Shown here piece after piece: positions 36,801-55,382 of a DNA stretch of 64,000 nucleotides. The first letter of the stretch is position 1. Each line of letters starts with the position of its first letter. Made by a program: the position numbers and the translations under genes. The stretch comes from Panorpa germanica. Taxonomy: Eukaryota; Arthropoda; Insecta; Mecoptera; Panorpidae. Location: positions 26,775,034 through 26,839,033 of the forward strand of contig OY783205.1 in the NCBI GenBank assembly GCA_963678705.1, in the 5' to 3' direction. The notes beneath the pieces were generated by a model, which saw only the letters and a program-made list of their open reading frames with translations, was not told the DNA's origin and did no database searches.

Positions 36801-39510
36801 GTAACTAAGGAATCCATTCAAATTAGAAATTCAAGTTTATAATTTATTTACTACTCATCAGTTTGTAAATTATTATGATGAATACTTAGGTTGGCTCATG
36901 GCAGCAACAACCCACGAGGATTTGGCGGTCCTGTGTCTCCCGGATCATTGGACTCAAAACAATCTCGCTATGAATTTTTAGATGGAATTATATTGTATTA
37001 TCATGCTTTGGCACATAAGCAATTAACAAAGGTAGTAAGATTATAAGTAGCTGTTGATAGCAATGTGATCAATTTATACGATTAAATTAAAATTTACATT
37101 TTAAAGATTGGTGATATGAGAGATAATCAAGTTGAGCTAGTGACTTCATTAAAAGATGCAAGAGATAGAATTCAGTATATTAACCATCAAAGTAAAAAAT
37201 ATTTAAAACCATTTAACGGCAGTAGAAAATCAGATCCTGGTCCAAGTATTATACAACAGACTACCGATGTTGTAAATATTCTTCAAACATCGGAAACAGT
37301 TTTTGTAGTAAGCATCTCTCCACATGTTTTTACCATTTATAATCATTGCAGTTTTTTATTATTTTATATTTTAGAAAAGGTTAGAAGAACTCTCACGGCA
37401 GTTAGCTTGGGCGCGAGCTCTTATCGTATCACCAAGTAGACGACGAGATTTTGCTATTTTATTAGGAGTTGTTTTAGGAGTTCTTTTGGAAGCTGCTAAC
37501 ACAGGACAATTATTTGCATTTGTACCTGATTTTTATATTGAAGCCCTTTGCCAACTTACTACTGCAGTTAGAGATATCGGACATCCTGTTCCACCAAAAG
37601 CTAAAGATTTAGACGGTTAGCATTAATTATTTATAGAAACATTTTTTTCACAACTTTCTGATTCACAATATTTTTTACAGAACACATAGTATTAATAGAG
37701 GGAGTAGCTGCTTGGCTTTGTACATATTTTTCTGATTCTCGTGTTATTTTAGCAGGAGCTAAAGATTCTCTTGTTCAAGGTTTAGGCTCTTTAGCCATGT
37801 GCCCTACTTCATTACATGCCATGGAAAGAGTACCACTGGATTGGTAGATATAATCAAATATGTTAAATGTAAAGATTCCTTTATGGTATAATATTTTTAT
37901 AAATATTTTAGTCGAATTTGTATGGTAAAAGCTTTATTAAGACCATACGAAAATCGTGCATGGGCTCAAAGTAATTGGTTGCTTGTTCGTTTTTGGCAAG
38001 GAAGAGGTTTTGCATTTCGTGAGGCAAGAGCCCCACAGGGTTTCATGGGCCCTACTCCTCGGCCCAGTCCCACTATGTCAGATACCGGGCTCCTTCATAG
38101 ATATTGCGGTATGAATAAATATTAAAAACCATGTGTAACTTCATTGCGTTGCTTGCATTGAATAATTTTTATTTACAGAACCATGTCCATCGGAAGTGTT
38201 TCAAAATCATGTCGGAGAATTATTAAGACATGAAGCATTGGCAACTGCTTTTATAAACTCAGTATTAAATCAACTAAATTGGGCATTTTCAGAATTTATA
38301 GGGATGCTTCAAGAGGTTTGTTTAATGTAGAGTTGTTAAAGAAACTTGTCAAGCTATTAACTAATTCGTTTACTTTTATAGATTCAAAATATATCACTGC
38401 GCCCAGAACGTGTATATATTGAGTCTAGGCAGCTTAAAATTTGTGCAACCTGTTTCGAATTAACAGTATCTTTATTAAGAGTTGTAGAAATGGTAACATA
38501 TGTTGCCCCTCATGTTTTTCTTGACCCAAGCTTGCCGGCCAGTGATTTATTACTATCAAGATTACTCCAGGTATATACAATTTTCTTTTTACCTATTCGA
38601 AAATTGTATTTTAATTTTAACATTTCCATTACAGCTGATATGTCAAATATTAAACAGAATCAGCAGCACTTCTGGTTGTTTTCAACATGCGGTTGGCCTT
38701 AGTTTACCCGATTTAGGAGTTGTTGGGCACTTCTCAATTTTAGCAGCCTCTATTGGAGTATTACTGGGTCTACTTGAACCAGAAATTTTACGAAAGGATG
38801 TCACTCTCCCTCAAGTACAAAGATTTCAAAATAATAAAGATAGCTAATATTCAATAACGGATGATAATTCGTTTTATGTTTAATTGCAGATACCTAGAGT
38901 CTGCCGAGCATTATTAACAGAGCCTTCTTTCCAGCTCAGTTCTATAAAATTTTCATTAGGAGAAGTTTCAAATCAACCAGTGCCTGATTCTACAATAGAA
39001 ATATTTTCATTTTCAAACTGTAAGAATATGAAACATCTCATTTTAATTTAAAAATTCGTAGTAGAGAATTTGTTACTCTTTTAAATTGAATGTATATATT
39101 TATTTTTTAAAACAGCTTTTTAACTGTATTAAAATTTAGATCCCAACAGTGTGACAGTATCTGAAGTAGGACAAATTCGAAAGGTAATAAGTGGCTTGGA
39201 GGTGTACCAAAGTTTATTAAGTGCATCTACCATTCTTGGCGATGATATAGCGTGCCCGATTTGTTACGCTCGACCACTTAGTGCAACCTTTAGCCCTTGT
39301 GGGCATCGGTCCTGCGCGTAAGTTGTGTAAAAAATAATGTGTATTAATCTTTATCCAAATATTTTAAGAAATTGCATTTAATTATTGAATTTCAGAGCTT
39401 GCATTGCACATCATCTAATGAATTCTCGAAAATGTTTCTTCTGCATGGCAAAAATTGAAAAAGTTTATGATTTCCAGGGCGCTACATTACACGTATTACC
39501 GGCGTCATGA
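33875..39510 (+). CDS. RNF123: RNF123/KPC1-type E3 ubiquitin ligase, 22 exons
   Basis: Joining 22 exons with GT-AG borders gives 3882 nt, or 1293 residues plus stop, in one frame; human RNF123 is about 1.3 kb of codons too. Exons: 33875-34102, 34184-34345, 34416-34609, 34678-34834, 34962-35209, 35294-35572, 35640-35859, 35939-36013, 36154-36343, 36428-36547, 36625-36760, 36890-37031, 37107-37307, 37375-37615, 37681-37843, 37912-38108, 38179-38315, 38382-38570, 38635-38814, 38890-39019, 39140-39317, 39396-39510. A SPRY domain (about residues 75-235, with GWCTAKCRF and GNRVRKWNV) is followed by a long helical middle with the conserved [17 protein letters not shown]. At the end is a C3HC4 RING finger (C1235, C1238, C1250, H1252, C1255, C1258, C1269, C1272). 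RNF123 is the catalytic subunit of the KPC complex, which ubiquitinates cytoplasmic targets such as p27/Kip in vertebrates; the insect substrate is not known to me. All introns are short (about 64-140 bp) and free of transposons. Confidence 0.96.
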
Positions 39511-41513: not shown

Positions 41514-44500
41514 TTATCGTCTGCGCCGTTTGCCTAATCCGGTCCACATAAGTGCAGGGTCGTAATAATTAGTACCCTTATATCTTTGAGGTTCTGGAGC
41601 AGATACAAAAGCTCGAACTAGCCCAGAAGGTCTATGTGATCGCATTGCGTGAAGATATGCAGCTGTTGCACTTGGACGAAATAATTTCTCAGAGTGATCT
41701 GAAAAATAACATAACCAAAAATTATTAACTAGTTTAGGATATTAATAATAGATGGTGTTGTCGAAAATAATTATTTCTTAAAGAAAATTATTCATCGTCA
41801 TAAATTTATAATTTCTGCTTGTGGTATTTAAAATCTCACTTCTGACTATATCCTTTAATTAAATTAATTGATGTTAAAAGTAAAATATGAATTCGCAAAT
41901 TAAAGCACGTGTTCAAAGCTATACTTTACAGAATACAGCTTACTTATAAAGTAAGGATTACTCAGAAAGGGCTTATTAGTAATTACATTATCAAGCTTTG
42001 AAAGTTTACAATGTTAAAGGGCACTAAAAGGACTACTTTGATTTATTATCGTACAAATTTTCTAATACAGTTTATCAAGTTATTATGTCTTGGAAATTGA
42101 AAACAAATTGAAAATTGTTAAAGTAAAAGTTTTGTGGTATAACAAGTGTTTGAAAATGTGTTTTAATCTAAGTGAATTATTTTCTAAAGCATTTTAATAA
42201 GTAATTACTTTAAAGTAAAGTTTCTGAAGATTTGGATTCAATTTCTTGATGAAAATTGAGTTAATTCTTCAATTTTGATATTTAACTCTTTAAAGCTGAT
42301 TTAAACCATGACGTAAAATGTATAGACACGCCCCTGCATTCAGTTTTTATGAAAAAATGTGAATTCTATTTACTTAGTACCTTGCTACTTCGACTGACCC
42401 CTAGTAATACCGAGTGACTCCGCCTTACTTCGACGTATTCCAAATTTTATCTTTTCTATAGAACCTTTTACGCCTTGTGGATAGTCTACCATTATTACAA
42501 TCTCACAAATAAATTGTTTTTCTTTTTAACATTTGACGGCACAGTGTCCGTCAACAAGCAGCGGAGTAGGGCACCATAAAAACTGGTAACACAGTGGAAG
42601 GTCGTCCTTCAGTGAGAGAATATAGTATTGAAAATACGCTGACGTTACATAAATTAAATTTAGAAAAAACATTTTTGGTGGTGGAAACGCCGGATATTTC
42701 ATTTTATATTGTTGTAATATTCTTCAACGAATCCGTTATTATTCTAAAGTCACTAAATGATATTGTTGTTTATTAAATAAAGCTTTCTACATCAAGAACT
42801 TTAACACTGTCATTCTCTTAAGCGCTTTTTAAATCGTTTATTACATCTAAGACAAATGTAATTCATTCAACTGTTTTGTTTCTAATGTAGTGAGCTTTTA
42901 TTTTCATAAAACTTAAATCATTAGAAAGAATTAAAAGTCATTTTCTCGCCTACGAAATGTCTTTAGTTAAAGGTAATGTTCTAAAAGTTGATTAAAAACT
43001 TTTTGAATAAAATTAAACAATTATTTGAAGTTTTGTGCTTAATTTTCCGATTAATTAAAGTTTCTGCTTTGTGTTTAAAAAGTTTATATTTGTAATTTAG
43101 TTAATATTGTTATAAAGAAAATAACAGAGTATTGTATTTTCCTGACTTGATATTAATCATATGTGAATTAAAGCACAAAAGCTTTAAATGCATTTTAAAA
43201 CGGGAAAAATTAATTTTGCGTAGGTTTGAATTTTTATATACAATTACATATATAATAAATACGAATGTAAAATTATTTCGAGTTATACTTCAAAGACACA
43301 TATACAAAGAAAATAAAAAGAGAAATTAAAAATCTGTTTCCGGCATATCAAAAATACAGTCATTAAAAGAAAATATTATACGCAGCAAGTAGAATAGATA
43401 ATACTGTAAATATATATTCGCACCTTTGACAAAATATTAAGTAGAATTATTTTGTTAATTTCGATTTTTCCACAAAATTAGTTGATTTCTCTTGCTGATA
43501 GTGTATCTGGATTATGGTCTTATGTTACATAAACACGAAAATTAAGTGGTCTGCGTTTTTTATAATTAATGGATCATTATTAATATGAGTATTAGTATAC
43601 CATCCGTCCCAACGGGGGCTTGGTGGAAAAAATTGGACCTAATTTGTCAAAGAAGATGTTAATCAATTAAAACACATGAGTACCGTGTTTATCAGGTACT
43701 AATTAAATAAGTACAGGGACGGACTAAACGTTTATTGGACCTTACAGTTTAAAGCGTTTTCTTCTTTGTGAATAGGGCCACTCAAAATGATTCGTTTTAT
43801 ATACAACTGTGACATAACCTCACATTTCTTAACAGATGTAATTAATTTACTAAAATAATTAAATTTAAATACAATTTGTTAAAACTTTTATTACTTTAAC
43901 TTACAAATTAATTATCTATTAGTAAGATAAAACAATTTTAATTAATAAGACAAGGAATGTTTATAGATTTATCATTAAAACGTGAAACAAATTTCAATAA
44001 GTTCAATCGTGGATTCCTTTATAAATAAATGTTGCTATATGTAGAGAATTATAAGTTAGGAAAAGCGTGTTAAGTTGGCAGTCCTGCAACGCGATCCCTT
44101 AACGTTATTGATAATTTGTTTGTGTTGGTAATTAACAAGAAAGCAAGACCGAACTACTATACTGGAGATTTAGATGTAGGCAAGCTCTCGCCCAGCGCCA
44201 TTTTAATTCTTTATTCAGACTTTGTTGCATTCCCAGTAAACAATTTGGTGAAGTTTCCTTTTTTGTGACGTTTCTATCACTATTACACTTCAATTATAGT
44301 TCGTATCAACTTTATCTTAATTTGTATTCCGACAGGTGGAATGGTTTCACCATTTGTAGCAGATAAAATAGACATTTTATATGAACGACTGTGAAAACTA
44401 AACTCTTGCATGACAAAAAAGTCATACGCATCTTCAATATGATGGAAAAGTGACTCCAAAATGTTAACTGAGTTGTTTAGTTATGGAATTCTGTTACTTT

Positions 44501-47500
44501 ACTTTTTATTAATTTACTGCTTTAGAAATTAGTTTTTTGAAAACACATGTTGGAAAAAGACTTGTATGTAGAAGTTCCGTTATAAAGAAGTGGATATTTT
44601 GAATTCACGGCAAAAGGGAAGTAATGCAGTTCCACTCTTCAATATCTCAGTATTTTAAGAGTTGTATAATTTAAATAATTATAAATGATCCTACCGTAAA
44701 ATTTTCATTAAATATTTGTTTCAAGTTATATTCATTCTTGGAACATAGTAGAATACAATTCGGTGACATTTAATAATAATTTTGATGAATTTTCTTTATT
44801 GCTTGTTTTTAAGTCCCACGGGACGTAGGAGGTGGGTTTTTATTTATCCAATTTCTTTTAGGTTATTTCAAATAATTTTGATAAAACTTTAGGCTATAGA
44901 TATAAATAGATTTCTAGATTAATAGTAGTGATGATATATATACCTTTTAAAATTTCTGTGAAATTATTTTATACTATCCCTATAAAGTATAGGTTAAATA
45001 AACAGTTGCATATAAAACTAAGCTTCTTATTAATTGTAGGTAAATATGTCAGAAGTAATTAAAAATGTTCAATTTCAAAGCAAATCATTTTTTTATTAAA
45101 GAAACACTTGTAAAACAAAATACATCCTTTGACGGAGTATTGGCTTCGCTTTATTACTTTTTAATAACGATTGATTACATATTATCTATCAGTTTTGTTT
45201 GCTGAATATTTGCAGAGTTGTAAAACTTTCCTGTCGGTAAAAAAGAGACGAATATTTTATATATCATTTACATTTAGTATATTGTTATTTAAATGAGTAG
45301 CAAATTATATAAGACTTGCTTCAAAACTTCTTAAAAGTACAAGCCGAACTTCTGTTAAAATCGCAGTCACGATATCAAGGTCACGATAAAATTGTAGTCA
45401 CGATTATATCGTGACAACGATATATCGTAGTCCGTATAAAATCGTAGTCACGATAAAATCGTACTGGTTTATATATATATATATATATACAATAACATTT
45501 TCTTTTAAATTGGAAATGTTTTTACAATATACTGAAGTTTTTAAATAAAATAAATCAAAATTGACAAAATTACTGCATTTTTAATTCGTCACATTTTGAG
45601 CGCCGACCTCTGTATATATAAAACAGACGTCACTTTCCGACGGTATAAAAGCAGGAGTGCCCCAGGGTAGCGTCCTTGGACCAGTTTTGTATTTACTATA
45701 TACAAGGGATATTCCACAACCTGAGAATGCCACAATAGCTACCTTTGCAGATGACACTGCAATAATGGTTACTGGGAAGAAAGAAGAAGAAGTGAATAGT
45801 AAACTGCAGCAATCGCTTAATGAGGTTTATAAGTGGACAAAGAAATGGCGAATTAAGCTGAACGAAGCCAAATCAACGCACATAAATTTTACAAACAGGA
45901 AAACTATTCCTTTCGCAGTTACCCTCAACTCACAAACAATACCTTACTCCAACACAGCGAAATACCTAGGTATGACACTAGATGCGAAGCTCAAGTGGAA
46001 GGAGCATGTCAAAATGAAAAGAGAGCAGCTAAATATTAAACTCAGAAAAATGCATTGGTTAATGGGAAGGCACTCACAGCTGACCGTGCATAACAAGCTG
46101 GTATTATACAACCAAATACTGAAACCCATTTGGACCTATGGTATACAACTGTGGGGTTGTACCAAGAAAACCAATTTGAAGAAAATACAAACGTTTCAAA
46201 ATAAAGTACTGCGTAGTATTACAGATGCGCCATGGTACATCAGAAATGAAAATCTACATCGTGACTTAAAGATGCCCACCGTAGACGATGAAATCAAGAA
46301 GGCAGCGAGTAGACATTTGCTACGTCTACAAGACCACCACAACAATGAAATATTGCAGTTACTCGATACGAGAACAGATCTGCGTAGATTGAAGAGGACC
46401 AAGCCTCAAGACCTGACCCTGTGATATCTACCACTGTACCACACAATAAGAAGTGTGTAATATAAATCTTTCGGAACTAGTCAGTGGATTGGATCTGGAA
46501 TACGTATTGTAGTTATTATATATAAAAATTGCTAGATAAGCAAATTTGCTTAGTTGTAATTACCTTGTAAATAAAAAAAAAAAAAAAAAAAAAAACTTTC
46601 CGACGGTGAGTTTACGCTAGTTTAATTATAATAATAGTTGATTTAAAATATACATAACTTTGTTTAGTGAGATTTATTATTATTATAAAATTCCCAGTCA
46701 ATATAATGTAGTTTTAGAAACTATCTAAAATGAAATATAGAGCTTTTATTAATGTTTGAGAGCTTTCTATGAATGTGAACTGTAACTACACTTAAAGCTC
46801 ATATTACGTTTGTTCACAAAGAGCTTTTTAACTTTAATTATACTGCAAACACTCGCTATTTAAATGGTGTTAATTAAGTTATCATGTAATATTTTAACAT
46901 TATTAATTTAGTATTTAATTAATATACTATGTCGTGTGTCATAGACTCATAGAACTCAAGTAAACGGGCTTGGAAACGTCGGATTTTTTATTAAATTTGT
47001 ATTGAAATATATTTGTTAAATATCTAAAAGTTGACAGAGATATAGCTACTTAAGATTTTAATTTCAGTATTTAATTACTTAATTTTTAGTTTTAATCTTG
47101 TCGTCACTAAATACGAATTGAAATCTGTATACTAAAGAGTATTCAATTTCATTTATCCTTATGCAAGTTTTTAAGAACTTTGGGTGTTCATCTCCTTTAC
47201 ACTCTACTATATAACAGAGACTGCAATTTATAGAAGGGAAAAGAGCTAAATAGCTGTCATGATGAATTAAAGGTAGAGAGTAGATATTTTATAACTGTTC
47301 CTTGGCGTGTATGACCTAAAAGTTGGAATCATCCTAAAACAATATAGAAACAATTTTAAATTACTCACCAGCAGCTCTGAATACTGTCTGCACTGGTTCC
47401 TTTTCTTTTGGTGGAGTCTTCATAGATCTTATACTGTGCCTTAAATCTTTGAAGAAGCTGCTTAAATCTGATAGAACTCCCGGAAATTTTTCTGCAGATA

Positions 47501-50500
47501 ATTAATAAGTATTTGTTAATAAGAAGTTTTTTTTAAAGCTACACACGCTACATAAAAGGGTGTTTCAACTAATGCAACCTTCAACTTTTTAGTGTAGTAA
47601 TTCTTGCAGTTCTTGAAATAAAATTGGAATAGACTCTTTGGTAGTGCATTTGGCATATGTGAAGCCATCTTTGCCTCTCTACTAGTATCATCCTAACTTC
47701 AACACTGTCCCAGAACACTATTTACCTCTCTACTGATTTCTATATAAGATAATAACGTTATAAAACTATAAACTACAAACCTAAATTTTGAATACTGTTT
47801 TTAAATTCGTCGATTTTTTGTTTTTCAAGTTGTTGTGATCTTCTTGCAACCACTCCCCTTAACGCTGATCTTTTGTCTTCTCCGGGAAGCAGCTCATCAT
47901 CTTCTTCGGATAACTCTGTCTCGTAATCGTCTTCATTATACGATGGATATTCATCAGCGTTGTAAAAATCTTCACTGTTATCCAAATCAGAATCTGAAAT
48001 GAAAATATTCATTTTATTTCTATAGCAGTAATTATAAAACAGTTTGAAAACAACTGAGAGAACACTTTACTCACTACTCTATTTTATTTAAATACGATTA
48101 TCATCCTGTGCGAACCAATATATGCTGATCAATATCATCCCCTAGGAGTTAGTTTATTAATTAAGAATATCATTGGATTAATTATCATTTTATCAGGAAA
48201 TCACATTAGTAAATAAACTAGCAGCAAATTACACAAACACATTTAGATTTAGGTTATCAGAATAATTATTCTAAAATTTTCTGTTTTAGGGTATTAATAA
48301 AATTAAATAACTTTCCAATACCTTAGCAATTAATTTTACATAGAAAAAATACGAAAATATTTGAAATTAGTTTAAAAAATTCTGTAAGTTTATTGCTTTT
48401 TTACACCCACGCCTGAGTGAGAGAAGAAAGTAAGCTTGAAAATACAATATTTTTAAATAAAATATTTTTAATATAAATAGTAACACATCCTTTAATTAGT
48501 TCGTAGCTTGTAATATAGATGGCGCCACCATTGGCAAATCCATATGATTTTTAGATAGTACCAACCTTCAAGCGATATGTGTTAAAATTTCATGACAATC
48601 CGACCATTATTTTACAAGTTGTGGTAGTTTTAGTAACGCTACTTTTGTAATTTTTAAAACAATGGAAAAATTTGAATTTTGTGTGTTGATAAAGCATTAT
48701 AATACAGATAAAATAACCAAACGTATTGAAATTGAAAATAGATAGAATTGGTGATCGAAAAATCGAAGTTACATAGTAACTTAAATTAATGTCTTGGAGC
48801 ATAATAATGTACACAAAAAAGTATATGTTTTAAATAACAAAAATATAGGTTATGTAAAACATCTGTCGTTCTTATTTATTAAGAACACATAAAATACTTA
48901 TTCTTTTAAAAAGTAGTCCACATGCCTTAAAATACTTCAGACATGGTAGAAGAAGGTGGCCTAATTCTTTATCAAACAAACCAAGAAGTTTTATGAGGTA
49001 TCTGAATGAATAAATTACAATTGAATTAAATTATGATACGTAAAGTAAAAATAACCTAAAAATTATAATTGCTTTTTTGTGGGAGTAGAATCTAAACATG
49101 TAAAGCTTCTGACAGCAATGAGTTTTGTTTCTGACGCGTACAAATCAAAAATTTGATATATATAAATATGTATAGTATTTTTATAAGAATTTAAAAAAAT
49201 ACAAAAATACGTAATAATTTACATACCCGTATATAACTCTGGTAGGTGTATGTTATATTTATATTTAGTGAACATAAAAAATGATTGTGGGAGGCTATAT
49301 TTAAATTGTAAAGTTATGTAGCTGCTATATAAACGTATCAAGTTTTTAAATAATATTTTTATCATTTAAGGGGAGGGATAAGGTTTTAACTTTTTTTTAA
49401 ATTTATTTTTATTATTGTACAACATATTAAGTTTATTGTGTGAAGTCGATTGAAGTAAAACTGTCGGAGATATAGAGTTTTAAGTCTCCACCTCTCTGGT
49501 CTGCTTTCGTGTTACTTTGAAACTTTTAAATGAGATTTCTCACACATAGCTTTTTCAGAGTCGGTGCCCTCTCTAGCTCAAAATCTACTGGTCCGATTCT
49601 TTTGAAATTTTGCACACTTTTTCTTTACATAAATGTCGAGGTAACTCTGTCGATTTTTTTTTTAATTTTAACGTATTTTAAAGTAACAAAGTTTCTAATT
49701 TTTTTCATAAAAAATCGGTATTTTGACTTTTAAGTGCTGTAAAAAATTGAAAAATCAGTAAAAAAAGAAAAACTCGACATCGTTACCTGCAGAAACTAAT
49801 CAACTAATGAAATCATTTTGGTTTTTCGATTTCAGAAAATCCAGTGATGAGTTATGAGTGGCACCGCAATGTTACTTTTTTTGTGACGTCTGCGGAGATT
49901 CGCTGTCAATGCCTCATTTCTTGATATTTATTTATGAAAATTTCACAAAATATTCTTCTAATGTCATTTTATCATGTAGTAATTATAGAAACATTTATAT
50001 ATTAACAGCTTCTTGTGTGCTTCTCTTTTATCGTTTTGATCTTAACCTTAAATAATAACTAATTCTTCTATTTTCTTTTTTCAGAAATACGTTGTGCATG
50101 GGTCTCCAGATATGCATGGTGGGTCGCTTCCATTACGGGGTAAGTCCATTATTAAAATAACTTTTAAAGAACAAATCTTCTTCTTGATAGACTATCGATT
50201 TCGATACCCTTCATCAACTAATTTCCTATTCACTGATCCCTTTTTCTTTTTAACGTAAAATTTACTTATCTTCACGCGACATGGTTTTAACATCTTCTCC
50301 AGTTTCATCCTAATGTAATTTCTTGGTTCATAAAACGTAGAGCTTACAGCGTAGGCTTGATTCTACGTACAACGTAGAAGTTAAATTGAAATAACAGTGA
50401 TGCTGACAAAGATATAAATTTCTTTTTTTTTAAATATGATTATGTTCCTCATGTGTGTTTATATTTTTTTTATTTTGAATATTAAACTTGGAAGAGATTT

Positions 50501-52041
50501 AGGGGATGAAATCATCCACGTTTAACACAAAAGCGTAGAGGGAGGGGATGTATTCGTAGCTTTCCTTGGGAGCTAATAACGTATGGTGGGTTATCACTTC
50601 CAATATGATGGATATATTTTAAATCCAGTTTTTGTTTCAAGTGATTCAATTATTTTACTTGAGTTGTTTTTATCTTTTTTACTTTTTTGAAAATGGTGAG
50701 AATTTTAAGATAAGTGCATAAGGTTAACGAGTAAATCAAATATATTTTTAAAGGGCCTTTCATAAATTACGTCACGCAAATTTCTTGCTATTTTGGCCGC
50801 TCTGTCCACCGCACATCCTTATCACATTTCTTCGAGGGGCGAACGTGACTGCATGTGACGTCACAAAGCTTCTGACTCCTCCCCCAAGTTTCAACTTTTT
50901 TTTTTTACTTATTTAATTATTGAAAATATAATAAACTATAAAATATAGTATATATAAAATATAATATAAAATATTAATGAAAAATCGGTATTTTGACTTT
51001 TAAGTACTGTAAATAGTTGAAAAATCAATAAAAAAAGAAAAACTCGACAACGTTACATGCAGAAACTTATCAACTAATGAAATCATTTTAGTTTTTCAAT
51101 TTCAGAAAATCTAGTGATGAGTTATGAGTGGCACCGCAATGTCACTTTTTTGTGACGTCTGCGGAGATTCGTTGTCAATGCCTCATTTCTTGATATTTAT
51201 TTATGAAAATTTCACAAAGTATTCTTCAAACGTTATTTTATCATGTAGTAATTATAGAAACAATTATATATTAACGGTGTCGTCAAAAAACATTATCGAA
51301 AATATGCTCCTTTTTCCTTAAAAATGACGTTAAACCGTTTTGACCTTAAAAATGGATGTTATTCTTTAGTTATACAGCTTTGCGTGAAACTCGAAAAATG
51401 ACGTGTATAGTAAAGTAGAAAATGTTAGACAATAAAAAATTGTATGTATATTTTAAACCCGTGACTTAATTTTATTATTTATTTTTTTTTTTTTTTTTTT
51501 ATTTAACGTCGGCCTATTTCCGATGCTGAGTCCTATCACCGACGACCTCCTTCAATGTTGTCAGTATTTATGGTGTCGTGGCCTCATATATGTGTGCTAC
51601 ACCACTCCCTAATAACTGTACGATTATGTATGACCATAATCAATATAAGTTCATAATAACCAAACCCAGAAAATATATATCTGGTCCGGGGATCGAACCC
51701 GAAGACACAGCAGTCGGCGTCAAGCATCAATGCTCTCGCCCACTGTGTCGTCTTATTATTTATTATTTTACACTAACGACTGAGATTTTAAAATATATTT
51801 TATATACAGAAATATCTCTGTGGTTTAACGTTCTTTTTACGTAATAATATTACCATAATTTCACATATGCAGTGGACTATATATTTCAATGAAATTAATT
51901 TTTATAAATTGAAAAGAAATACGTAATTTTAATTTGACGCCTACCTTTAGATTCTTCATCAATTGCCATGGCCAACACTTTGTTTAACGACATCATGCAG
52001 ATAAATAACCAAATAATTTGAATTTTAATTAGCACCATCAT
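41514..52041 (-). CDS. Secreted precursor of a C-terminally amidated peptide (probable neuropeptide), 4 exons
   Basis: Exons on the - strand: 51945-52041, 47781-47993, 47369-47491, 41514-41698. All borders are GT-AG and every junction is phase 1, giving 205 residues. Residues 1 to about 25 form a signal peptide (KIQIIWLFICMMSLNKVLA). Residues 33-72 are very acidic. Dibasic sites lie at 73-74 (KR) and 83-84 (RR). The protein ends YYDPALMWTGL-GKRRRR, i.e. glycine as amide donor followed by basic residues. That is the processing grammar of insect neuropeptide hormones, predicting a mature peptide ending MWTGL-amide; cleavage at R183 would give a 16-mer starting at Tyr184. It does not match the classical families I know well (FMRFamide, pyrokinin, kinin, allatostatin). 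A less familiar family such as HanSolin is possible, but I cannot confirm that from memory. Function should be as a signalling peptide acting through a receptor. Confidence 0.85.
44232..44471 (+). mobile_element. MITE family C, copy in intron 3 of the peptide gene
   Basis: It begins cccagtaaacaatttggtga and aligns end to end with 23915-24166; the right terminus (aaatgttaactgag) is mutated. It lies inside the 5.7-kb last intron of the gene at 41514-52041, antisense to it. Confidence 0.8.
45343..45490. repeat. Short tandem array of a cgatatatcgt/agtcacgat motif plus (TA)n
   Basis: The words agtcacgataaaat, gtcacgattatatcgt and cgtagtcacgataaaat recur between about 45360 and 45462. A (TA)n run follows at 45472-45490. 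The units are internally palindromic (atcgtgacaacgatatatcg). Confidence 0.6.
45645..46594 (+). mobile_element. 5'-truncated Jockey-type LINE with intact reverse-transcriptase end
   Basis: A 950-bp insertion is bracketed by a 13-bp target duplication, actttccgacggt (45632-45644 and 46595-46607). It ends in a run of more than 20 A. It carries the 3' part of a Jockey-clade ORF2, open from the element's first base to the TGA at 46422-46424. The reverse-transcriptase motifs are AGVPQGSVLGPVLY, FADDTAIM (the catalytic YADD-type box) and KYLGMTLDAKLKWK, followed by the usual QLWGC region. No stop or frameshift is present over about 260 codons, and the tail and duplication are clean, so the insertion is recent. 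Without the N-terminal domains it cannot be active. It lies within intron 3 of the peptide-precursor gene, antisense. Confidence 0.95.
46595..46620 (+). mobile_element. Helitron-like 3' terminus interrupted by the LINE
   Basis: Removing the LINE at 45645-46594 restores aaacagacgtc-actttccgacggt-gagtttacgctag followed by T. This matches the 3' end of the Helitron at 10068-10435 (aaacagacgtcgcttgcgacgg, then ctag and T). The LINE therefore landed in the hairpin region of an older Helitron-like copy, whose 5' part lies left of 45632; I could not find its 5' end. Confidence 0.7.
46963..47060 (-). repeat. Fragment of a family B element
   Basis: A degraded terminus (cgggcttggaaacg) is followed by ttaaatatctaaaagttgac and agatatagct, matching the terminal 100 bp of the 31551-32146 copy. 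The rest is lost. Confidence 0.5.
48518..48690 (-). repeat. Family M dispersed repeat, copy 3, in intron 1
   Basis: It is the reverse complement of 27945-28081. It begins atggcgccaccattggcaaa and includes agcgatatgtgttaaaattt. It lies in intron 1 of the peptide gene (47994-51944). Confidence 0.7.
49385..50053 (+). mobile_element. Dispersed repeat family D, copy 2, in intron 1
   Basis: It aligns in opposite orientation to 8266-8942 over its whole length. Landmarks are tgtcggagatatagagtttt, ctactggtccgattcttttg and gacgtctgcggagattcgct. Its 60- to 70-codon frames are repeat-derived and are not genes. Confidence 0.75.
50755..51345 (+). mobile_element. Dispersed repeat family D, copy 3 (internally deleted) with attacgtcac-type left end
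   Basis: 50978-51345 repeats the right half of 49385-50053 in the same orientation, about 0.9 kb downstream. The left part (50755-50977) carries aaattacgtcacgc and, inverted, tgacgtcac, then a pyrimidine-rich ctcctcccccaag stretch. A similar attacgtcac block occurs at 61687. Whether the left part belongs to the same element is uncertain. Confidence 0.55.
51484..51752 (-). mobile_element. tRNA-derived SINE with 12-bp target duplication
   Basis: Read on the - strand it starts with a tRNA-like head (gtgggcgagagcattgatgc, then the B-box ggttcgatcc). It continues through an unrelated body and ends in a poly-A tail of about 20 (seen as poly-T from 51484). It is bracketed by ttattatttatt at 51472-51483 and 51753-51764. 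The clean tail and duplication argue for a fairly young insertion, in intron 1 of the peptide gene. Confidence 0.85.
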
Positions 52042-53630: not shown

Positions 53631-54350
53631 ATGTTCGTTTTAAAACGCGTTATTGACTTAAACGCTTTTGTCATAATAGCAGCAGGGCTAATTACACATA
53701 ATTTAAAGTTATGTTTCACTGGAGTCTGTCCTTATACCATCAGTAATATGGCGGATCCAAGTATTGCATCGAATATAGTGGCTTTATCGGTATCCCTGGT
53801 TGTTTTTCATTTTAATGCATTTTGGCCAAGCAGTTTTAAAAAGCCGAATGACATTGTTAAGGCATTCTACAACACGCTAATGTCTTCGTTAGTTGTTAAC
53901 CTGGTGATAGCATTGGTGTGGGACAACATACAATATTCGTTAAGGGTGTTTGGAATTAATAACTTGTATAAAACTTCAGCAGGAAGTGGACTTGATGATA
54001 CAGCTAGATTTATGTACTGGTGAGTGTTAGAACTATTGTAACTCATAAACTAATGATCGTAAAGTCATGAAATTTTAGTTTAGTCAGTGATTTATATATT
54101 TTTTAGGACAAGCACGGACGCTGGGTTTGCCTTTATGCGAACTTCCGTTGCAATGATGTTTTTCGTAACAGTTCTCTTCCTAACCAGCGCTCAATTAGGA
54201 TCCCCCCAACGTATACAAAAAGAAGAGGAGCCCTACAGACGTGGACATAGTGCCACTGGAGATAACTTCCGTGAATCACGCATGTCTTCAGCGCAGAAAG
54301 TCTTTCGGTTACACTCCACCGAAGGCTTTATTAAACCCAGTCGATTTTAA
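53631..54350 (+). CDS. Four-helix membrane protein of unknown family, 2 exons
   Basis: Exons 53631-54019 and 54107-54350 join in frame to 210 residues. Four hydrophobic segments are visible, at about residues 10-29, 45-65, 79-97 and 140-158. A polar loop with GINNLYKTSAGSGLDD lies between the third and fourth. A basic/polar, probably cytosolic tail of about 50 residues carries RR, RGHS and RMSSAQKVFR motifs that could be phosphorylated. There is no signal peptide distinct from helix 1. I do not recognise the family. The first ATG of the frame was taken as start because it follows an AT-rich leader with stops. AATAAA at 54377-54382 gives a plausible 3' end, only 27 bases after the stop. The 87-base intron resembles a dispersed repeat. 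The next gene starts 198 bases after the stop. Confidence 0.8.
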
Positions 54351-54548: not shown

Positions 54549-55382
54549 ATGGGAAAAATTGATATTTTTAAGTTGGGTGCTTTAGATAAAACGAAAACTG
54601 TGTTTTTATTATGTGATGTGCAAGAAAAATTTAAGCCGGCGATGGTACTTTTTGATCAAGCTTGTGCTGGAGCTAGTAAAATGGTATATTATACAAATAT
54701 TTATAGACTTATAAGTAAATAGCGTCAGTAACATTATTTTTAGGTAACAGCAGCAAAAATATTTAAAATCCCTTTATTGGTTACTGAACAAAATCCGAAA
54801 GGTCTTGGACCCACAGCAAAAACCATCGATATATCGGCAGCAAAATGTGTTATCCCAAAAACAGGATTATCGATGAAGCTTCCTCAGATGGACGAACAAT
54901 TTAAATGCTTGTTCCAAGATAAATTAAAGTCCGTTGTTATTTTCGGATTAGAGGTACATAGATTTTGTTCCTAAATTTCTAAAACTTTGTCAACGTTTTC
55001 GTTATTTGATAATTCTTTTAAACGGTAGGCTCATGTTTGTGTGGAACAAACCGCTATTGATTACACCGCTGCTGGATATACCGTTCATATTGTTGCAGAT
55101 GCTACCATATCTAGATCACAAGAAGATCGTTTCCTGGCGTTCAAGGTCAGTTCTTCCAGCATTAACGGAGATGATTCTTCTAATCCATTAATAGTACTGA
55201 TACATTTATTCTTGCAGAGAATGGCTTCCATAGGTTGTCGCATTTCTACAAGCGAACACGTGATTTTCTATTTATTGAAAGATTCTAAAGCTCCAGAATT
55301 CAAAGAGATTGCGAAGTTAATTCGACCCGTCACACCATTTACTGGATTAGCTCCCAAATTGGAAATTGAAAAAAAGAAATGA
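54549..55382 (+). CDS. Isochorismatase-domain hydrolase, ISOC1/ISOC2 type, 4 exons
   Basis: Exons 54549-54683, 54744-54953, 55029-55145 and 55218-55382 all join at codon boundaries (phase 0) and give 208 residues, the usual length for the animal ISOC family. It is a single cysteine-hydrolase (isochorismatase-like) fold. The likely catalytic triad is Asp23 (in LLCDVQEKF), Lys84 (in VIPKTGLSM) and Cys119 (in AHVCVEQTA). The conserved VTEQNPKGLGPT and AGYTVHIVADATISR blocks are also present. Animal ISOC proteins are placed in the cytosol, peroxisome or mitochondrion. Their physiological substrate is not established, and animals do not make isochorismate, so the name describes the fold only. The C-terminus ends in KKK without a peroxisomal SKL-type signal. 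No defect is visible. Confidence 0.95.

What the first reader, a model, noticed from the sequence alone, without database searches (positions are those of the whole stretch)
41514..52041. Candidate amidated neuropeptide precursor ending in MWTGL-amide
Four exons, all joined at phase-1 GT-AG junctions, give a 205-residue protein. It has a signal peptide, an acidic spacer, KR and RR sites, and a terminal glycine followed by lysine and four arginines. This architecture is specific to peptide-hormone precursors. The predicted C-terminus (YYDPALMWTGL-amide) is not one of the classical insect families I know, so it may belong to a recently described or undescribed family.
Basis: partly seen in the sequence, partly recalled or inferred. 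Interest (0 to 1): 0.8.

Follow-up and report, generated by a model that had tools for sequence, protein, structure and literature searches.

The report
Unnamed insect WTGL-amide peptide hormone precursor
This gene appears to encode a secreted hormone precursor ending in an amidated peptide (…YDPALMWTGL-amide); its relatives, so far without a name, occur in many insects, water fleas, shrimps and crayfish, and probably a millipede, so it may be an overlooked arthropod peptide hormone whose receptor and function are unknown.

Summary
Four minus-strand exons joined at phase-1 GT-AG junctions encode 205 residues: a signal-peptide-like start, an acidic spacer, KR and RR sites, and a terminal YYDPALMWTGL-G-KRRRR-stop. 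Exons 3 and 4 match only here in the 464 Mb genome.

Three searches returned 96 proteins from bugs, stick insects, orthopterans, roaches and termites, a louse, Lepidoptera, Daphnia, decapods and a millipede. 88 of 96 end in GLG plus K/R; 83 of 96 carry [DN]PxxLW[TSA]GLG. None bears a functional name. A second block, GVLSDMxxFFxxLRxNL, matched in 78 of 96, is the best-predicted internal helix of a termite relative.

Tested features argue against HanSolin, iPTH/PXXXamide and fliktin/PaOGS36577. Sequence strings tried in open full texts found no paper on this peptide; subscription papers and supplements were not searchable. Best explanation: a peptide prohormone of a conserved, apparently undescribed family. 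Amidation, mature N-terminus, expression and receptor are inferred or unknown.

The parts
51945..52041 (-). Exon 1: start codon and signal-peptide-like segment (residues 1-32 plus one base)
   Evidence: ATG at 52041 preceded by an in-frame stop; donor GTAGGC; signal peptide judged by eye
47781..47993 (-). Exon 2: acidic spacer, KR 73-74 (about 47874-47869), RR 83-84 (about 47844-47839)
   Evidence: RR conserved in the first ten relatives aligned; KRSA...RR also in lepidopteran relatives
47369..47491 (-). Exon 3: conserved helix block GVLSDLSSFFKDLRHSIRSM (residues 108-127, 47480-47421)
   Evidence: Block matched in 78 of 96 relatives; exon found once in the genome; helix in the model of a termite relative
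41514..41698 (-). Exon 4: conserved FRPSATAAYLHA...RPS..VR.FV segment and C-terminal amidation/cleavage signal, stop at 41516-41514
41535..41567 (-).
   Evidence: Sequence; motif [DN]PxxLW[TSA]GLG in 83 of 96 relatives; amidation inferred
41517..41534 (-). Amide-donor glycine G200 and basic tail KRRRR
   Evidence: Sequence; GLG[KR]* end in 88 of 96 relatives

Best explanation
The gene encodes a secreted peptide prohormone of an apparently unnamed family found in insects and crustaceans and probably a millipede. Shown here: the gene model, a single genomic match for exons 3 and 4, homology, a conserved C-terminus with glycine plus basic residues at the end of the reading frame, and a conserved helical block. 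Inferred: the signal peptide routes the precursor into the secretory pathway; convertases cut at KR/RR and in the basic tail; a carboxypeptidase trims K/R; PHM/PAL converts G200 into the amide of ...YYDPALMWTGL-NH2; the amide acts on a cell-surface receptor, most likely a G-protein-coupled one. Whether the active unit is the C-terminal piece alone or a long peptide that also holds the helix block is open.
For: Precursor anatomy and splice structure. Homologs at E down to 1.9e-23 across hemimetabolous insects, Lepidoptera, branchiopods, decapods and a millipede. 88 of 96 end in GLG[KR]*, although the number of basic residues varies, as expected of a tail that is trimmed off. The N-terminal propeptide is poorly conserved while two downstream blocks are kept. 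A termite relative is modelled as mostly unordered apart from helices (mean pLDDT 62.9, pTM 0.25), as many prohormones would be. No Pfam family for the window protein and only insignificant matches for relatives.
Against: No expression, mass-spectrometric or receptor evidence was available. The signal peptide was judged by eye. In this protein no dibasic site lies within 115 residues before the amide, and R-S-H-R at 32 residues is followed by Pro, a poor cleavage context (recalled), so the short peptide is not clearly released. Decapods lack the WTGL end (PYAHSGLGK instead) and their E-values are weak (5.2e-4 to 4.2e-2), as is the millipede's (1.1e-3). The held peptidome papers that I looked into by passages (for example) do not mention it, and no such sequence was found in open texts.
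Confidence: 0.82

Rival explanations
1. The hormone is one long amidated peptide of roughly 93-115 residues: the helix block is its receptor-engaging N-terminal part and the amide its C-terminal end. The short WTGL-amide is not the natural product.
For: The helix block is as widely kept as the C-terminus (78 of 96) and is nearly constant in decapods, whose C-terminus differs. Helix block to amide spans 91-94 residues in 13 of 19 representatives, and 12 of 19 have no dibasic site in between. The block is amphipathic: 5 of 6 sequences exceed at least 98% of shuffles, Daphnia 84%.
Against: The lack of dibasic sites is not significant in any sequence (lowest P 0.094), and 7 of 19 do have one or two. 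Lepidoptera have a dibasic site 21-27 residues before the amide in 23 of 31 rows and 37-38 in 8 of 31, Daphnia rows 37-39, and two Macrosteles isoforms 52, which fits shorter products.
Confidence: 0.35
2. It is a divergent member of a family already described, most likely in a subscription paper or a supplement that could not be searched, or of iPTH/PXXXamide, whose sequences I could not compare directly.
For: Many neuropeptide lists sit in supplements. iPTH has a conserved SD near the N-terminus of its mature peptide and this family has S-D in its helix block. A mollusc relative of iPTH also makes different peptides by alternative splicing.
Against: iPTH is reported absent from Lepidoptera and, in Tribolium, continues beyond GRR, whereas this family has 31 lepidopteran rows and ends at the basic tail. 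Strings from the family were not found as this peptide in open full texts.
Confidence: 0.3
3. A secreted protein with another role, such as an antimicrobial or structural peptide, with a basic tail that is not an amidation signal.
For: No functional data; one relative is named only 'Secreted protein' (Chilo); the product is basic and holds an amphipathic helix.
Against: The glycine just before a basic run of varying length at the end of the reading frame is kept in 88 of 96 rows, which is hard to explain without amidation. Small in-frame exons that add GLG-KR recur in insects and decapods.
Confidence: 0.1
4. The four-exon join is a chance construction and no such gene is expressed.
For: No RNA evidence is available here.
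Against: The joined product matches independent proteins over exons 3 and 4 at E 1.9e-23, with no internal stop, and two junctions sit at isoform boundaries of relatives.
Confidence: 0.02

Closest known systems
Unnamed orthologs: Nilaparvata LOC111053922, Macrosteles LOC128997682, Zootermopsis LOC110826489, Bacillus rossius LOC134533534, Galleria LOC116413226 and others
   Same: Helix block GVL(S/N)(D/N)..., exon-4 core in hemimetabolous insects, DPxxLWTGLG plus basic end
   Different: Many have a small alternative exon adding GLG-KR before the helix block, not found by motif in the window gene; the window row is on a long branch, 46% at best to Nilaparvata
iPTH / PXXXamide / QSamide (PMC7224569, PMC8398477)
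   Same: Single amidated peptide precursor; an S-D pair in a conserved stretch; splice variants in the oyster gene
   Different: Reported absent from Lepidoptera, has a C-terminal extension after GRR in Tribolium, Pro at -4; the Tenebrio precursor is 110 residues
HanSolin (PMC7179676)
   Same: Single C-terminal amidated peptide
   Different: Ends GQPLRW-amide or similar; precursor of 88-139 residues in Polyneoptera
Fliktin / PaOGS36577 / Pea-NPLP (PMC9552230, PMC12604039)
   Same: Recently described insect neuropeptide-like precursor
   Different: 691 and 679 residues in two tenebrionids; counted among multi-copy genes
Allatostatin A (recalled)
   Same: Ends in GL-amide
   Different: Recalled to have many (Y/F)xFGL-amide copies; here one WTGL-amide

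Membership tests
Amidated peptide-hormone precursor (general kind) | N-terminal signal peptide | tested here: inconclusive
   Hydrophobic core and A-M-A site by eye in residues 1-26; helix predicted at the N-terminus of a termite relative; no signal-peptide predictor was available
Amidated peptide-hormone precursor (general kind) | Glycine followed by basic residues after a conserved peptide | tested here: met
   G200-KRRRR-stop; GLG[KR]* end in 88 of 96 relatives
Amidated peptide-hormone precursor (general kind) | Processed, amidated peptide detected in neurons or endocrine cells | not testable with these tools
   Needs mass spectrometry
iPTH / PXXXamide | Absent from Lepidoptera and Diptera | tested here: not met
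   31 of 96 rows are lepidopteran
iPTH / PXXXamide | Pro at position -4 of the amide (described as only mildly conserved) | tested here: not met
   Position -4 is W196
iPTH / PXXXamide | Sequence extension after GRR (reported for Tribolium) | tested here: not met
   Reading frame ends directly after KRRRR
iPTH / PXXXamide | Ser-Asp at positions 7-8 of the aligned mature peptide | tested here: inconclusive
   S-D lies in the helix block (residues 111-112), but the mature N-terminus is unknown and no iPTH sequence was at hand
HanSolin | C-terminal GxPLR(W/F)-amide and precursor of 88-139 residues | tested here: not met
   Ends ALMWTGL-G; 205 residues
Fliktin / PaOGS36577 | Long precursor with several peptides | tested here: not met
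   205 residues here against 679-691; no direct alignment was possible
Allatostatin A | Repeated (Y/F)xFGL-amide copies (recalled) | tested here: not met
   One WTGLG and no FGLG in the 205 residues

The most novel reading that the evidence does not exclude
An undescribed hormone system of mandibulate arthropods in which alternative splicing sets the products. Skipping a small exon fuses ...GLG to the helix block and gives one long helix-plus-amide hormone. Including it inserts GLG-KR and releases a second GL-amide (for example ...TPWLGL-amide in Macrosteles...TMDVGL-amide in crayfish) beside the C-terminal amide. The insertion is seen as a clean isoform difference in five species, three insects and two crayfish. 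The window's lineage appears to have lost the switch. Against it: the insert begins KP in Daphnia and KA in Lepidoptera, so the dibasic cut is not universal.
Probability: 0.28. Interest if true: 0.8.

Novelty: new member of a known kind. Interest (0 to 1): 0.6.

Why it matters
If true, a peptide-hormone family kept from crustaceans to moths has been sitting in databases as uncharacterized proteins, several of them in pests such as planthoppers, leafhoppers, locusts and stem borers. It would supply a defined candidate ligand for orphan arthropod receptors and can be tested at once in species whose neuropeptidomes have already been measured.

Tried and rejected
Rejected: HanSolin, fliktin/PaOGS36577 and iPTH/PXXXamide, each on reported features, since I had no sequences of theirs to align; allatostatin A on recalled features. 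Domain and structure libraries gave nothing: Pfam none for the window protein and only insignificant matches for 14 relatives; NCBIfam one insignificant match in 3 proteins; PDB best E 0.82 and 0.094. A resemblance of the helix block to vertebrate PTH came to mind from memory; it was not tested and is not claimed.

Led nowhere: string searches in papers and locus names. Searches listed 8 and 10 papers; I judged them unrelated by title, except one crab neuropeptide paper whose passage proved to mean FGLGKR of allatostatin A. Dibasic depletion was not significant. The tree (33 of 39 rows; six short or unnamed rows dropped) puts the window with Lepidoptera at 90/86 but warns that long branches may join falsely. 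The host species was not identified. The alternative exon was sought in the window gene by motif only. No fold search was run on the low-confidence model.

Full report
What was checked. The gene is on the minus strand. Splicing 52041-51945, 47993-47781, 47491-47369 and 41698-41514 gives a 618-nt frame and 205 residues; the three junctions are GT-AG and phase 1. An in-frame stop lies upstream of the ATG, and AATAAA follows the stop codon at 11, 50 and 86 nt. The window is C2:26775034-26839033 of an unnamed 464 Mb genome, in which a degenerate pattern for the C-terminal codons matches once and the exon 3-4 protein matches only these two exons (E 5.1e-19 and 3.8e-36).

Anatomy. Residues 1-26 read as a signal peptide by eye; 27-72 are an acidic spacer; KR 73-74; RR 83-84; 108-127 GVLSDLSSFFKDLRHSIRSM. 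Exon 4 encodes FRPSATAAYLHAMRSHRPSGLVRAFVSAPEPQRYKGTNYYDPALMWTGL, then G200, KRRRR and stop.

Homologs. The spliced protein found 10 proteins at E <= 1 among 148 candidates, best 1.9e-23. A five-row profile found 21 at E <= 1 among 7997 scored candidates, and a profile of the conserved parts 93 at E <= 10 among 7992 scored. In both profile searches only the candidates sharing most words were scored, so absences carry little weight. Together these are 96 distinct proteins, isoforms and fragments included: Hemiptera, Phasmatodea, Orthoptera, roaches and termites, the louse Menopon, 31 lepidopteran rows, Daphnia, decapods and the millipede Chamberlinius, and a number of unnamed rows. No named beetle, wasp or fly was among them. 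Names given were uncharacterized, hypothetical, unnamed, of unknown function or, once, secreted protein.

Conservation. 88 of 96 end in GLG[KR]* and 83 of 96 contain [DN]PxxLW[TSA]GLG. The 13 without it are P0018-P0021, P0041 and P0088 (fragments or other ends) and seven decapod-type rows ending PYAHSGLGK, one of them unnamed. The helix block is matched in 78 of 96. Weak members: decapods at 5.2e-4 to 4.2e-2, Chamberlinius 1.1e-3, P0020 5.6e-3 and P0021 0.30. For decapods the near-identical GVLSDMRKFFNELRTNL(D/E)SVEEV block supports kinship.

Splicing in relatives. Isoform pairs of Macrosteles, Nilaparvata, Periplaneta, Cherax and Procambarus differ by one in-frame insertion that adds KR right after GLG (13 residues in four pairs, 45 in Nilaparvata). 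A second variable stretch precedes the exon-4 core in Macrosteles and Homalodisca. These places lie 4 residues and 1 residue from the window's junctions 2/3 and 3/4, which backs the gene model. In Daphnia the insert begins KP and in Lepidoptera KA, so a dibasic cut there is not universal. A pattern for the insert matched 30 of 96 rows and missed variant forms visible by eye, the decapod ones among them. In the window gene the insert was not found by motif.

How it probably works. A secreted prohormone is cut at KR/RR, its basic tail trimmed, and G200 turned into an amide; all of this is inferred from the anatomy. What is released is uncertain. In the window the last dibasic site is 115 residues before the amide, and R-S-H-R at 32 residues is followed by Pro. 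Lepidoptera have a dibasic site 21-27 residues before the amide in 23 of 31 rows and 37-38 in 8 of 31; Daphnia rows 37-39 and two Macrosteles isoforms 52. The span from helix block to amide is 91-94 residues in 13 of 19 representatives, range 85-119. Twelve of 19 have no dibasic site in it and 7 have one or two; depletion is not significant in any (lowest P 0.094).

Structure. The model of the termite relative P0027, from 32 sequences, has mean pLDDT 62.9 and pTM 0.25. Besides the N-terminal helix 2-32 it has a helix at 82-102, the conserved block, with block means of 65, 87 and 82 for residues 81-90, 91-100 and 101-110; shorter helices at 106-112, 133-140 and 168-171 are less sure. The block is amphipathic: five of six sequences exceed at least 98% of 5000 shuffles, Daphnia 84%.

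Known families. Seen of the papers: PMC7224569, abstract, first part of its main section and passages; passages only of PMC7179676, PMC8557429, PMC8398477, PMC8426621, PMC12604039, PMC10148640, PMC9552230, PMC10570428, PMC6425005, PMC6585902 and PMC4655400. iPTH is reported absent from Lepidoptera and extended after GRR in Tribolium. HanSolin ends GQPLRW-amide or close to it. Fliktin/PaOGS36577 is 679-691 residues in tenebrionids. That the peptide is not in print rests, open-licence full text only; supplements could not be searched, so it may already have a name elsewhere.

Surroundings. An RNF123-like segment at 38500-38844 (+), a reverse-transcriptase fragment at 45657-46424 (+) within intron 3, and weak DUF4818 and isochorismatase matches, both below Pfam's cut-off, at 53631-54023 and 55041-55382 (+). 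No Rfam family reached its threshold in the window.

Verdict. An amidated peptide prohormone is likely; which piece is active, and what it does, is open. It looks like an undescribed family of a known kind.

Noticed in passing
window 45657-46424 (+), A-run near 46576: Reverse-transcriptase fragment (RVT_1, E 9e-15) followed by an A-rich run, inside intron 3 and antisense to the gene; looks like a truncated non-LTR retroelement.
   Followed up: partly
window 45380-45463: About five copies of a 17-base near-palindromic repeat (GTCACGATAAAATCGTA) shortly before the retroelement fragment.
   Followed up: no
window about 49680-49990 and 50980-51270: Two long similar stretches (starting near GAAAAATCGGTATTTTGAC) in intron 1, seen by eye; probably copies of an interspersed repeat.
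   Followed up: no
window 38500-38844 (+): Open frame matching the RNF123-like TPR family (E 4.6e-10), a neighbouring gene on the other strand.
   Followed up: no
window 53631-54023 and 55041-55382 (+): Open frames with weak DUF4818 and isochorismatase matches, both under Pfam's cut-off.
   Followed up: no
relatives P0001/P0002, P0003/P0005, P0031/P0036, P0093/P0095, P0094/P0096: Isoform pairs in three insects and two crayfish differ by an in-frame insertion that adds GLG-KR before the helix block, so splicing may switch a cleavage and amidation site on or off.
   Followed up: partly
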